Part shown: one piece after another, positions 5,824 through 27,609 of the stretch
Numbering within the stretch: position 1 is the stretch's first letter
How the letters are laid out: the number at the start of each line of letters is the position of its first letter
From: Methanoculleus sp.
Lineage (GTDB): Archaea > Halobacteriota > Methanomicrobia > Methanomicrobiales > Methanoculleaceae
Direction: 5' to 3'
Assembly: GCF_030019085.1 (NCBI RefSeq)
Contig: NZ_JASEFJ010000012.1
Location: 1 to 55,569, forward strand
Length of the DNA stretch: 55,569 nucleotides
Translations under genes and position numbers: made by a program
The notes under the pieces: generated by a model
Told to the model about the DNA's origin: nothing
The model's input: the letters and a program-made list of their open reading frames with translations, nothing else
Database searches by the model: none

Positions 5824-5890
5824 GGAAAAATGGCCACCCAACTATTTTAATGGGGTATGCTTGTGGCCCAAAGGGCATCATGTAGTTTTT
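5824..5890 (-). repeat. Dispersed repeat, copy 1 (probable IS110 end)
   Basis: Read on the minus strand, this stretch matches the plus strand at 55503-55569. Both contain ACATGATGCCCTT, a GCCC...GGGC mini-hairpin, GCATACC, ATTAAAAT and CATTTT in the same order with close spacing. Copy 1 sits immediately 5' of the IS110 transposase region. The second copy is cut by the window end. Confidence 0.7.
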
Positions 5891-5940
5891 TACGAAGAGA
5901 ACAGGTAGAATGCCCCCGGCTTCAGTTTGGGGGGCAGTCG
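5889..5940 (+). repeat. Solitary TnpB-element end with hairpin
   Basis: The first 29 bases (TTTACGAAGAG...GAATGCCCCC) match 24474-24502 at 27 of 29 positions. The hairpin TGCCCCC (5911-5917) with GGGGGCA (5930-5936) follows. The stretch ends in GGGGGGCAGTCGC, close to GGGGAGCAGTCAC at the 3' end of the tnpB gene at 25691-25703. It therefore looks like the 3' (guide-RNA) end of a lost IS605/IS1341-type element. No tnpB coding sequence remains here. Confidence 0.55.
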
Positions 5941-24204: not shown

Positions 24205-24237
24205 CCCCCGTTCAGGATGGAAGACTTTCGACCACCG

Positions 24238-24262
24238 CGGAGGGGATGGAACGTCCCCTCCG
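24238..24262 (+). terminator. GC-rich hairpin after the AI-2E gene
   Basis: CGGAGGGGA and TCCCCTCCG form a perfect 9-bp stem with a 7-nt loop, 34 bases after the stop codon. No T-tract follows, so it may stabilise the mRNA 3' end rather than terminate transcription. Confidence 0.45.
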
Positions 24263-24473
24263 TCAGTGCCAACCTGAGATGGCGATTCTCCATCAACACT
24301 GACAGGGAAGAGCACCTCCAGCGTCACGGTGAACCCCTCCTGAAAAAACCCTGTTTCCGGCACAGGGACGGCTTTCCGTGGGCTAGCGCCACATGCCATT
24401 CCCTACAGGCGGAGGAGGTATCAGTTAACAGGGTTGATGATCGCCGGGCAAACAGCCATAAAGATGTGGCGAG

Positions 24474-24520
24474 TTTACGAAGAAAACAGGCAGAATGCCC
24501 CCCACTTTAGTGGGGGGATG
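24474..24520 (+). repeat. TnpB-element end repeat with perfect hairpin
   Basis: TTTACGAAGAAAACAGG...GAATGCCCCC matches 5889-5917 at 27 of 29 positions. It is followed by CCCCCCAC-TTTA-GTGGGGGG (24498-24517), a perfect 8-bp stem with a 4-nt loop, and then ATGAATGCC. Such hairpins close the ends and guide RNAs of IS605/IS1341 elements. Because it lies upstream of the tnpB here, it may be the 3' end of an older element into which, or next to which, this one inserted. Confidence 0.55.
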
Positions 24521-24570
24521 AATGCCGTCCCTCGATAACATTATTACGCGCCGTCGTGTATACGACTATA

Positions 24571-25662
24571 ATGCTTAAGGCATATCGGTATCGACTCTAT
24601 CCCTCAAAGTCCCAGGTGACTCTGCTTGAGCAGACGCTTGAGATCTGTCGGTGGGTCTATAACGATACCCTTGCGTTGCGAAAGACCGCATGGGAGCAGG
24701 AGCAGCATTCAATCTCTCTCTACGAGACCAACAAGATCCTTACACAGTGGAAGAAGGAACGACCCGATCTGAATCGGGTTCATTCTCAGGTTCTCCAGAA
24801 CGTTCAGATGCGCGTGGATCTTGCCTTCAAATCGTATTTCAGGCGCGTAAAAGCAGGGGAGAACCCTGGATATCCTCGATTCAAAGGGAAGGGACGATAC
24901 GATAGTTTCACGTACCCCCAGTCGGGATTCAAACTTGATGGAGACCGCCTTCACCTTTCGAAGATCGGAGACGTGAGGATCGTCCTTCACCGACCTATCG
25001 AAGGGAGGATCAAGACCCTCACGGTCCAGCGGTCTTCGACCGGGAAGTGGTATGCCTGCTTCTCGGTCGAGTATGAACCCTCTCCTCTCCCGCAGAAGGA
25101 GACGACGGTCGGGGTCTATTTCGGCCTGGAGTCCTTCGCAACCCTATCAACCGGGGAGAAGATCGAGAACCCCCGGTTCTTCCGTACCGATGAGAAAGCC
25201 CTTGCGAAGGCACAGAGAAGACTCTCGAAAGCAGAGAGGGGCACTCCTGAACGGAAGAAGGCCCGGAAGATCGTCGCACACGTCCATGAACGGATCGCCA
25301 ACAGACGGCTCGATTTTGCTCACCAGACTTCCCGACAGTTAGTGGACCGGTTCGGTATAATTGTGTTCGAGGACCTGAATATCACAAACATGCAGAAGAA
25401 CCCTCATCTGGCAAAAAGCATCGCGGATGTTGCCTGGAACCAGTTCATCACGGTCACGAAGAGCAAAGCGGAAGAGGCTGGCTCTCGGGTGATTCTGGTG
25501 AACCCCAGGAACACGTCGCAGATGTGTTCCAGATGTGGCATGATCGTCGCAAAAGAACTTTCAGATCGTGTCCACTCCTGCCCGCATTGTGGGCTGATGA
25601 TGGACCGCGACCAGAACGCGGCGATCAATATTATGAGATTGGGGCTGCAATCTCTGGGCTGA
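24571..25662 (+). CDS. tnpB: TnpB (IS605/IS1341 type) with altered RuvC active site
   Basis: TnpB is an RNA-guided DNA nuclease encoded in IS200/IS605 elements. The 363-residue protein has the N-terminal fold (MLKAYRYRLYPSKSQ), the RuvC core and a C4 zinc ribbon (CSRCG at 319-323, CPHCG at 337-341). Of the catalytic acids, E267 (IVFEDLNITNM) and the DRDQNAAINI Asp (345-347) are present. The first one is missing: the motif reads VGVYFGLESFATL, with Y183 (codon TAT at 25117-25119) where relatives have Asp (GxDxGL). The rest of the protein is intact and uninterrupted. Loss of DNA cleavage is expected, while RNA and DNA binding may persist. No tnpA is nearby. The frame is open from a GTG at 24556, but ATG at 24571 matches the family start. 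Confidence 0.93.
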   Translation: MLKAYRYRLYPSKSQVTLLEQTLEICRWVYNDTLALRKTAWEQEQHSISLYETNKILTQWKKERPDLNRVHSQVLQNVQMRVDLAFKSYFRRVKAGENPGYPRFKGKGRYDSFTYPQSGFKLDGDRLHLSKIGDVRIVLHRPIEGRIKTLTVQRSSTGKWYACFSVEYEPSPLPQKETTVGVYFGLESFATLSTGEKIENPRFFRTDEKALAKAQRRLSKAERGTPERKKARKIVAHVHERIANRRLDFAHQTSRQLVDRFGIIVFEDLNITNMQKNPHLAKSIADVAWNQFITVTKSKAEEAGSRVILVNPRNTSQMCSRCGMIVAKELSDRVHSCPHCGLMMDRDQNAAINIMRLGLQSLG

Positions 25663-25703
25663 AAAACCCTGGATGCCCCCGACGAAAGGAGGGGAGCAGT
25701 CAC
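25550..25703 (+). ncRNA. Probable omega (guide) RNA of the tnpB element
   Basis: In TnpB systems the guide RNA overlaps the tnpB 3' end and runs to the element's right end. Here the sequence after the stop has ATGCCCCCGAC...AGGGGAGCAGTCAC, a short C/G hairpin and the TCAC end common to such elements. The element would then end at 25703, and the guide would be the flank beginning GTAGACCGATGGCGTAAAAA at 25704. The 5' limit is a guess. Confidence 0.5.
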
Positions 25704-25978
25704 GTAGACCGATGGCGTAAAAAACGATTTTGCTCATAATCCGGGTATGACCTCCGGCCAGAGCGAAAATGGTGTGGATCGGATCTGCACCTGTACAACA
25801 CGATCTTACCCGGTCTTCTCCCGCCACCGGTATGGGGTGGTATGTAACTGAACCCGGGGCGGTGATAATGACCCTGACAGACCGCCGAGAAGGTCGAACT
25901 ATGGCGGGTGAGAGCGGGTATCGTCACACCCACCTCCACAGATGCGTATTTGACGGATGATGCCCCAGGTATTACGAA
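25704..25978. other. Non-coding flank between tnpB element and pth2
   Basis: No gene is supported. It begins with the presumed guide sequence of the TnpB element. The last 40 bases contain a weak AT-rich box (GCGTATTTGAC) that could serve pth2. Confidence 0.4.
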
Positions 25979-26341
25979 ATGCCTGAGGAACGGGAGTTCA
26001 AATGGAAGCAGTGTCTTATTGTGCGCACCGACATCAAGATGACCTGCGGTAAGAAGTGCGCCCAGATAGCCCACGCCGCCGTAAGCGCCTTTGAGAAGGC
26101 CGATAAGACGGCGAAGAAAGCCTGGCTTGACGAGGGCCAGAAGAAGGTGGTACTGAAGGTGCCCTCCGAACGCGCCCTCTTTGAACTCAAGACGATTGCC
26201 GAGCGGGCGGGGATCCCGGCATCGATCATCCAGGACGCCGGGATGACCGAGATCCCGCCGGGCACGGTGACGGCACTCGGTCTCGGGCCCGCCCGCTCCG
26301 AAGACCTGGACAGGATCACCGGAGATCTTCCGCTGCTATGA
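25979..26341 (+). CDS. pth2: Peptidyl-tRNA hydrolase, archaeal/eukaryotic type (Pth2)
   Basis: Pth2 frees tRNA from stalled peptidyl-tRNA in the cytoplasm. The 120-residue length is standard. The motif KQCLIVRTDIKMTCGKKCAQIAHAAV (key part KMTCGKKCAQIAHA) is the catalytic signature. QDAGMTEIPPGTVTALGLGP near the C-terminus completes the family pattern. Its stop overlaps the truD start by four bases, so the two tRNA-related genes are coupled. Confidence 0.95.
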   Translation: MPEEREFKWKQCLIVRTDIKMTCGKKCAQIAHAAVSAFEKADKTAKKAWLDEGQKKVVLKVPSERALFELKTIAERAGIPASIIQDAGMTEIPPGTVTALGLGPARSEDLDRITGDLPLL

Positions 26342-27609
26342 TCCCATCAACCCACCCCCTTGAACGCGATCTCGGGATGAGGTACTACGCCTCGGATACT
26401 CCAGGGATCGGCGGTCGCCTCCGCTCCACCCCCGCAGACTTCGTCGTCGAGGAACTTCCCCTGCCGGTCGCCGACCGGGAGGGGCCATATCTGATCTGCA
26501 GGCTCACCAAGACTAACTGGGAACTCCAGCGTGCGGTCAGGGAGATTGCAAAGCGTCTTGGTGTCAGCCACCGCCGGATCTCATGGGCGGGGACGAAGGA
26601 CAAGAACGCGGTGACAACCCAGTTTATATCCATCTACAACGTCTCTCCAGAGGCGGTCGAGCGGGTGCATCTACAGGATATCTCGCTTGAGGTCGTGGGG
26701 CGGTCGCAACACCCGCTCTCTCTGGGGGATCTTGCGGGTAACCGATTTGAGGTCATGATCCGTGAATGCCAGGATGAGGATCTTCCGGCACGGGTGCAGG
26801 CGGTCACGAAGGCGGTCTCTGCCGGGATACCGAACTACTACGGGTTGCAGAGGTTTGGTGTCATCCGGCCGGTCACCCACCTTGTGGGTGAGAGGATCCT
26901 CAGAGCCGATTACGAGGGTGCTGTGGTCACCTACATCGGTCGGGCGTATCCTATGGAACCGGAGGAGGTGCAGCAGGCGCGAACGCGATTTCTCGAGACC
27001 GGAGACGCGCGGGCGGCGCTTTCCGACCTGCCCGTCAGGCTGACCTACGAGAGGGCGATGGCAAACCACCTGGTCGCAAACCCCGGAGACTACGCCGGCG
27101 CGCTCCGGGTTCTTCCGCCGAAACTACTATCGCTCTTTGTGAGCGCGTTCCAGTCCTGCCTCTTCAACCATGCGCTCTCCGCCCGCATCGATACCGGTCT
27201 CTCGCTAACAGACCCGGAGGTCGGCGATCGTCTAATCTTTGAAAATGGCCGTGAGGATATTGTCACAGCACAAAACCAGCAGGCGGCCAGACTGCAGATC
27301 CGCCGTGGACGCTGCCGAATCGCCATCTTCGTCCCGGGTTCTGAACCGGTGGTGCGGCACGGGCCGATGGATGAGACCCTGCATGACCTGATGCAGAGGT
27401 GCGGTATCGACGCTGCGGACTTTGAGCGTGCCTCCAGGTTTGTGGAGACGGCTTTCTCGGGGGCTCTCCGCGCGATAAGCCTCTCTACCGGGGTGGAGGC
27501 AGAGGTCTATGCCACCGACGTCAGGCTACGGTTCAGCCTCCCTCCCGGCCACTACGCAACGACGGTCTGTCGGGAGTACATGAAGGCCGAACCGCATATG
27601 ATGATATAG
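26338..27609 (+). CDS. truD: tRNA pseudouridine synthase D
   Basis: TruD makes pseudouridine at position 13 of tRNA. It has 423 residues, the longer archaeal form. The catalytic Asp is D88 in WAGTKDKNAVTTQ. FVVEELPL near the N-terminus and NYYGLQRFGVIRPVTH (the NxFG-like motif, here YGLQRFG) are family marks. It follows pth2 with a four-base overlap and is convergent with the reductase gene on the other strand. Confidence 0.94.
   Translation: MIPSTHPLERDLGMRYYASDTPGIGGRLRSTPADFVVEELPLPVADREGPYLICRLTKTNWELQRAVREIAKRLGVSHRRISWAGTKDKNAVTTQFISIYNVSPEAVERVHLQDISLEVVGRSQHPLSLGDLAGNRFEVMIRECQDEDLPARVQAVTKAVSAGIPNYYGLQRFGVIRPVTHLVGERILRADYEGAVVTYIGRAYPMEPEEVQQARTRFLETGDARAALSDLPVRLTYERAMANHLVANPGDYAGALRVLPPKLLSLFVSAFQSCLFNHALSARIDTGLSLTDPEVGDRLIFENGREDIVTAQNQQAARLQIRRGRCRIAIFVPGSEPVVRHGPMDETLHDLMQRCGIDAADFERASRFVETAFSGALRAISLSTGVEAEVYATDVRLRFSLPPGHYATTVCREYMKAEPHMMI

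What the first reader, a model, noticed from the sequence alone, without database searches (positions are those of the whole stretch)
24571..25703. TnpB with a tyrosine in place of the first RuvC aspartate
The whole TnpB is intact, with zinc fingers, E267 and DRD, but VGVYFGLESF has Tyr183 at the catalytic Asp. The TAT codon is one base away from GAT. Nuclease-dead TnpB relatives are known to act as RNA-guided repressors (TldR). A full-length protein with an intact right end and one mutated catalytic residue could be an early step of that kind, or a recently inactivated element.
Basis: partly seen in the sequence, partly recalled or inferred. Interest (0 to 1): 0.65.

Follow-up and report, generated by a model that had tools for sequence, protein, structure and literature searches.

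The report
Recently disabled copy of ordinary TnpB
In one methanogenic archaeon, a copy of a common jumping-gene element carries an RNA-guided DNA cutter with a broken active site; close relatives elsewhere keep the working residue, so this looks like an ordinary, recently broken copy rather than a new gene regulator.

Summary
A full-length 363-aa TnpB at 24571-25662 has Tyr183 (TAT, 25117-25119) at the position of ISDra2 TnpB Asp191, and also Phe184 instead of Val. E267, D347 and the four zinc cysteines are intact. The early-TldR reading is not supported. All 18 close relatives and 7 outgroups covering the site have Asp. A degenerate pattern for the Tyr allele matched only the window among 232 Methanomicrobiales genomes and nothing in IMG/VR. 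The transposon ends are intact, no gene partnership is conserved, and the guide has no convincing second target in its own genome. Low dN/dS on this branch (0.13) tells little, because visibly broken copies score the same. Of 16 complete relatives, 6 carry stops or frameshifts, and this is the only full-length TnpB in its assembly. A new result limits the locus itself: the left flank belongs to an insertion whose exact empty site survives in a relative, but that insertion's right end lies at the end of another contig (C18). The window joins halves of two insertions, by recombination or misassembly, and a second copy remains unassembled. Best reading: a recently inactivated, decaying IS1341-type element; ordinary.

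The parts
24474..24478 (+). TTTAC, target/TAM sequence left of the element
   Evidence: Shared next to the left end by most insertions at unrelated sites; present in the empty site of relative G011
24479..25703 (+). Whole tnpB-only (IS1341-type) IS200/IS605 element
   Evidence: Homology to copies at unrelated sites starts and stops here; left boundary confirmed by the empty site in G011
24498..24517 (+). Left-end hairpin CCCCCCAC-TTTA-GTGGGGGG, perfect
   Evidence: Read from sequence
24571..25662 (+). tnpB, 363 aa (ATG; an in-frame GTG at 24556 would add 5 aa)
25117..25122 (+). TAT TTC = Tyr183-Phe184, in place of Asp-Val (GAT GTN) of relatives
25369..25371 (+). Glu267, second RuvC catalytic residue, intact
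25609..25611 (+). Asp347, third RuvC catalytic residue (DRDQN), intact
25643..25703 (+). 3' end of the omega-RNA scaffold: outer stem and two hairpins
   Evidence: Consensus fold of 22 copies; 9 of 23 pairs have a kept two-sided change; same overall fold for the window copy
25676..25694 (+). Terminal hairpin CCCCC-GA-C-GAAA-G-GA-GGGG; 4 G where the sister copy at the end of contig C18 has 6, so one C/G stem pair fewer
25704..25723 (+). Sequence read as guide, GTAGACCGATGGCGTAAAAA
   Evidence: Starts after the conserved GCAGTCAC right end; no convincing second target in own genome
23176..24204 (+). AI-2E family transporter, left neighbour; in relatives it is followed by the genes of contig C18, not by pth2
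25979..26341 (+). pth2 (peptidyl-tRNA hydrolase), right neighbour, followed by truD 26338-27609

Best explanation
This is one copy of an ordinary tnpB-only (IS1341-type) IS200/IS605 element of Methanoculleus whose TnpB lost its first RuvC catalytic Asp by a recent change that also altered the next residue (GAT GTN to TAT TTC). It is expected to fold and perhaps still bind its RNA, but not to cut DNA, and probably not to process its own omega-RNA, so it can no longer restore the element to an excised site. It is an early stage of the decay that the other TnpB loci of this genome have already undergone. Shown: the residue, its Asp in all close relatives, the intact rest, the element ends, the decay around it. 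Inferred: loss of cutting and loss of RNA processing (from mutants of other TnpBs), and recency. The locus is also a junction of two insertions: the left flank is from insertion A (AI-2E side), the right flank from another insertion (pth2 side), by recombination between copies or by an assembly misjoin.
For: Asp183 in 18 of 18 close relatives and 7 of 7 outgroups covering the site, and in all other members of a 37-protein alignment. The pattern for the Tyr allele matches only the window in 232 genomes of the order and nothing in IMG/VR. D191A in ISDra2 TnpB blocks cleavage in vitro and interference in E. coli (PMC8612924); an intact RuvC is needed for omega-RNA processing by AmaTnpB (PMC10278001). 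Tyr183 is the only window-specific change at a site otherwise invariant in relatives and outgroups (1, against 0-4 in other copies), so the rest has not eroded. Of 16 complete close relatives, 6 carry a stop or frameshift (about 5 separate lesions). In its own assembly it is the only full-length TnpB among 10 loci with the TNB domain. Junction: C18 10131-18135 is collinear with G011 and directly next to AI-2E there; C18 ends in the right end of a second copy; joining the window's left flank to the C18 flank gives G011's empty site without a gap; AI-2E lies next to C18 genes in five more species.
Against: The dN/dS ratio on the window branch is 0.13 (95% 0.08-0.21) without the short 3' fragments, or 0.16 (0.06-0.41) with them, which could also fit a protein still under selection; but the branch of a visibly broken copy (L053, 0.116) looks the same. 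A second copy of the element exists but its body is not assembled, so it is unknown whether a working copy remains. Two changes 3 bases apart are unusual for drift, and a consensus or sequencing error cannot be excluded without reads.
Confidence: 0.8

Rival explanations
1. A TnpB on the way to becoming a TldR: a nuclease-dead, RNA-guided binder that represses a target promoter.
For: Single catalytic loss with the rest of the protein and the omega-RNA scaffold intact; low dN/dS.
Against: No relative shares the loss. No second site in its own genome matches TAM plus 15 guide bases with 3 or fewer mismatches, nor Y-TTAC plus 7 guide bases exactly; the two weaker matches are about what chance gives, and the one followed up as to genes (L193) lies inside a ribosomal protein L1 gene. 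Transposon ends are still present. The neighbour pair was not found in relatives. Loss of RuvC should also block self-processing of the RNA (PMC10278001).
Confidence: 0.05
2. The Tyr codon, or the whole joined locus, is an assembly or sequencing error: reads from two or more copies were merged, and the codon does not exist as shown in any real copy.
For: The contig joins halves of two insertions; C18 ends inside a copy with a nearly identical right end; two substitutions lie 3 bases apart.
Against: The frame is intact through the whole gene; genuine recombination between two copies gives the same junction.
Confidence: 0.12
3. TnpB with Tyr183 is still an active nuclease, using a different metal-binding arrangement.
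For: One TnpB ortholog with rearranged RuvC-II residues is active (PMC10278001).
Against: No compensating acidic residue is seen next to it (the neighbour became Phe); those rearrangements define clades, not single copies; D191A in ISDra2 TnpB is dead (PMC8612924).
Confidence: 0.03

Closest known systems
IS200/IS605 TnpB of Methanoculleus (e.g. L060 in Methanoculleus sp. FWC-SCC3, 88% identity; L062-L069)
   Same: Nearly the same protein length, same element ends, same omega-RNA fold, insertion next to TTTAC or a close variant
   Different: All have Asp183-Val184; the window has Tyr-Phe, and a GNRA-like loop and shorter C/G stem in the terminal hairpin
ISDra2 TnpB (PDB 8h1j, 8exa, 8bf8)
   Same: Same fold (TM 0.84-0.86 for the structures with RuvC resolved), aligned catalytic positions
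   Different: 33% identical; D191 is Tyr in the window; its element also carries tnpA, which this element lacks
TldR (TnpB-like nuclease-dead repressors)
   Same: RuvC catalytic residue lost
   Different: TldRs arose as inactivated lineages, many tied to non-transposon genes (PMC13418256); none of that is seen here
Cas12m (Cas12 relative that does not cut dsDNA)
   Same: A RuvC that does not permit dsDNA cutting can still act by binding (abstract of PMC10442227)
   Different: A CRISPR effector family with a non-canonical site, not a single mutated copy

Membership tests
IS200/IS605 TnpB | HTH_OrfB, OrfB_IS605 and TNB zinc-finger domains | tested here: met
   Pfam E 1.8e-17, 2e-24, 4e-24; NCBIfam guided_TnpB 338 bits, cut-off 100
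IS200/IS605 TnpB | RuvC triad D-E-D | tested here: not met
   First Asp is Tyr183; E267 and D347 intact. The protein is a TnpB by descent but lacks the full active site
IS1341-type element (tnpB only) | Defined left and right ends, no tnpA inside | tested here: met
   Ends 24479 and 25703 shared by copies at unrelated sites, only tnpB between them
IS200/IS605 element | Seamless insertion 3' of a short target sequence | tested here: met
   Insertion A: G011 empty site GAGTTTAC|AGTCC against G000 GAGTTTAC|ACTCC, no duplication
TldR | RuvC inactivation | tested here: met
   Tyr183; loss of cutting itself is inferred, not measured
TldR | Inactivation shared by a lineage | tested here: not met
   Unique to the window in 232 genomes of the order and in IMG/VR; no same-species genome was available
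TldR | Stable association with a non-transposon gene | tested here: not met
   Copies sit at unrelated sites; AI-2E/pth2 adjacency not found in relatives
TldR | Guide matches a target in the host genome | tested here: inconclusive
   No convincing match; guides as short as 6 nt suffice for a TldR (PMC13418256), too short to exclude by sequence
TldR | RNA-guided DNA binding and repression | not testable with these tools
   Needs experiment

The most novel reading that the evidence does not exclude
A freshly nuclease-dead TnpB that still loads an omega-RNA, perhaps matured by host RNases or by another TnpB copy, and binds TTTAC-flanked sites without cutting: an archaeal 'day-one' dead TnpB in which exaptation could be watched from its start.
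Probability: 0.04. Interest if true: 0.6.

Novelty: new member of a known kind. Interest (0 to 1): 0.13.

Why it matters
Mostly as a caution. A lone catalytic-site substitution in a TnpB is not evidence of a TldR: this family is full of broken copies, terminal-branch dN/dS stays low even in a copy with a stop and a frameshift, and multi-copy elements break or cross assemblies so that the flanks, and hence TAM and guide, can come from different insertions. If the protein does bind RNA and DNA, it would be a natural starting point for measuring what a single loss of the RuvC Asp does.

Tried and rejected
(1) tblastn seemed to show Tyr-Phe in two other copies (L112, L099), which would have made it a shared trait. 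DNA alignment showed a frame artefact: L112 has GATGTC and the site is missing from L099. (2) A genus-wide pattern for the Tyr allele with 1 mismatch gave 15 matches, of which only the window's was exact; the others carry one mismatch and were not examined further. (3) Pairwise dN/dS and the branch model were considered as support for a functional protein and rejected, since a broken copy gives the same value. (5) Rfam has no match around the locus. (6) An empty site for the window's right flank was not found: 25704-25911 matches no relative, and the contig C2 that carries the genes upstream of pth2 in G011 begins inside a different TnpB element.

Full report
WHAT IS THERE. The window is contig C3 of an assembly (G000) of 1.91 Mb in 59 contigs, 99.6% complete. 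It is a Methanoculleus by kinship: its same-genus genome G008 has the contig lengths of Methanoculleus sp. FWC-SCC3. At 24571-25662 lies an uninterrupted TnpB gene, 363 aa, recognised by three Pfam domains and by NCBIfam. The AlphaFold model is confident (mean pLDDT 90.9) and matches ISDra2 TnpB at TM 0.84-0.86. Residue 183 is Tyr and aligns with Asp191 of ISDra2, one of the catalytic D191/E278/D361 (PMC10097598). E267, D347 and the four zinc-finger cysteines are intact. The next residue is changed as well: relatives read GAT GTN (Asp-Val), the window TAT TTC (Tyr-Phe).

THE ELEMENT. Comparison with dozens of copies at unrelated sites fixes the ends: left after TTTAC (24474-24478), right at GCAGTCAC ending at 25703. 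Only tnpB lies between, so this is an IS1341-type element. The last 61 nt fold, across 22 copies, into an outer stem with two hairpins, with two-sided compensating changes in 9 of 23 pairs. The window keeps this fold, with a GNRA-like GAAA loop and 4 G where the sister copy at the end of contig C18 has 6.

IS THE TYROSINE INHERITED OR PRIVATE? Private, as far as the data go. In 18 close relatives (81-90% identical) and 7 outgroups, position 183 is Asp; so it is in the other 36 proteins of a wider alignment. A degenerate pattern for the Tyr allele, one mismatch allowed, matches only the window among 232 genomes of the order and nothing in IMG/VR. One degraded copy (L084) has Asn, among other lesions. 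An apparent Tyr-Phe in L112 and L099 was an alignment artefact. The relatives are other species; same-species strains were not available.

SELECTION. A codon model with a separate ratio for the window branch gives dN/dS 0.13 (95% 0.08-0.21; background 0.12; ratio 1 rejected, 2dL 64). With the short 3' fragments of the nearest lineage included it is 0.16 (0.06-0.41; ratio 1 rejected, 2dL 8.1). This shows that the gene was under constraint for most of the branch, not that the present protein is used: L053, which has a frameshift and a stop, gives 0.116 in the same test. At sites invariant in all other copies, the window has 7 changes (other copies 2-12), and only Tyr183 hits a site also invariant in outgroups. 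The rest of the protein has not eroded, which fits a recent lesion.

SETTING. Of 16 complete close relatives, 6 are broken by stops or frameshifts, about 5 independent lesions. In G000 the window's gene is the only full-length TnpB among 10 loci with the TNB domain. The Y1 transposase matches are one reading frame near a contig end and one broken gene; whether an intact Y1 gene exists elsewhere cannot be told from this assembly.

THE LOCUS IS A JUNCTION OF TWO INSERTIONS. This is the main new result. Contig C18 of the same assembly ends in the last 63 bases of a second copy. C18 10131-18135 is collinear with G011, where it lies directly beside the ortholog of the window's left neighbour, the AI-2E transporter; a similar neighbourhood is found in five more species. 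Joining the window's left flank to the flank of C18 gives, at the joint, the empty site of G011 without gap or duplication: GCGAGTTTAC|ACTCCTGATCT against GCGAGTTTACAGTCCTGATCT. So insertion A had AI-2E on its left and C18 on its right. The window instead continues into pth2-truD, which lies about 958 kb away from AI-2E in G011. The window element thus combines the left side of insertion A with the right side of another insertion. Recombination between copies and a misjoin in the assembly predict the same picture; only reads or PCR can decide. Consequences: the TTTAC and the guide GTAGACCGATGG come from different insertions, and at least one more copy exists whose codon 183 is unknown.

TldR TEST. 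TldRs arose by repeated inactivation of TnpB nuclease domains without apparent loss of RNA and DNA binding, and many are tied to non-transposon genes (PMC13418256). Here the inactivation is not shared by a lineage, neighbours are not conserved, the transposon ends are intact, and the guide finds no convincing second site: none within 3 mismatches over TAM plus 15 nt, none with Y-TTAC plus 7 nt exact, and two 14-mers with one mismatch, about chance level. Of those two, the one checked for genes lies inside the ribosomal protein L1 gene. Because 6-nt guides suffice for a TldR (PMC13418256), sequence search cannot fully exclude a target.

MECHANISM. In ISDra2 TnpB, D191A blocks cleavage in vitro and interference in E. 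coli (PMC8612924). In AmaTnpB, an intact RuvC is needed to process the omega-RNA from the mRNA (PMC10278001). By inference the Tyr183 protein neither cuts nor matures its guide, and the copy depends on other copies, if any, for maintenance. The likely course is further decay like that of the other TnpB loci in the genome.

VERDICT. Ordinary, with a useful caution about flanks of multi-copy elements.

Noticed in passing
window 5887-5940: Mini-element: left-end sequence (TTTACGAAGAGAACAGGTAGAATG) joined through one hairpin directly to a right-end-like GGGCAGTCGC, with no tnpB body; looks like a MITE-like remnant of the same family.
   Followed up: partly
window 25676-25694 and relatives: The terminal hairpin of this family comes in two loop classes, fully paired GACTTCAGTC-type and GNRA-like GACGA(G/A)AGGA, and in L117 the second class appears inverted (TCCTCTCGTA), suggesting hairpin flips or exchange between copies.
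   Followed up: no
window 24205-25978: Synteny breakpoint: AI-2E transporter joined to pth2-truD only in this assembly; in relatives AI-2E is next to the genes of contig C18.
   Followed up: yes
window 25704-25911: 208 bases between the element's right end and the pth2 region match no relative in the genus; origin unknown.
   Followed up: partly
L226 (G000 contig C2) 1-257: The contig begins inside a TnpB of a different subfamily (86% to L022), another place where TnpB copies break this assembly.
   Followed up: partly
L128 and L129, 3001-4089: TnpB relatives on two IMG/VR contigs, each with one in-frame stop in the matched stretch (L129 at codon 43).
   Followed up: no
genome G033 (e.g. L083-L085, L099, L100, L108, L112): Candidatus Methanoculleus thermohydrogenotrophicum DTU006 gives an unusually large number of matches to this TnpB (64), many of them broken or cut by contig ends.
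   Followed up: no
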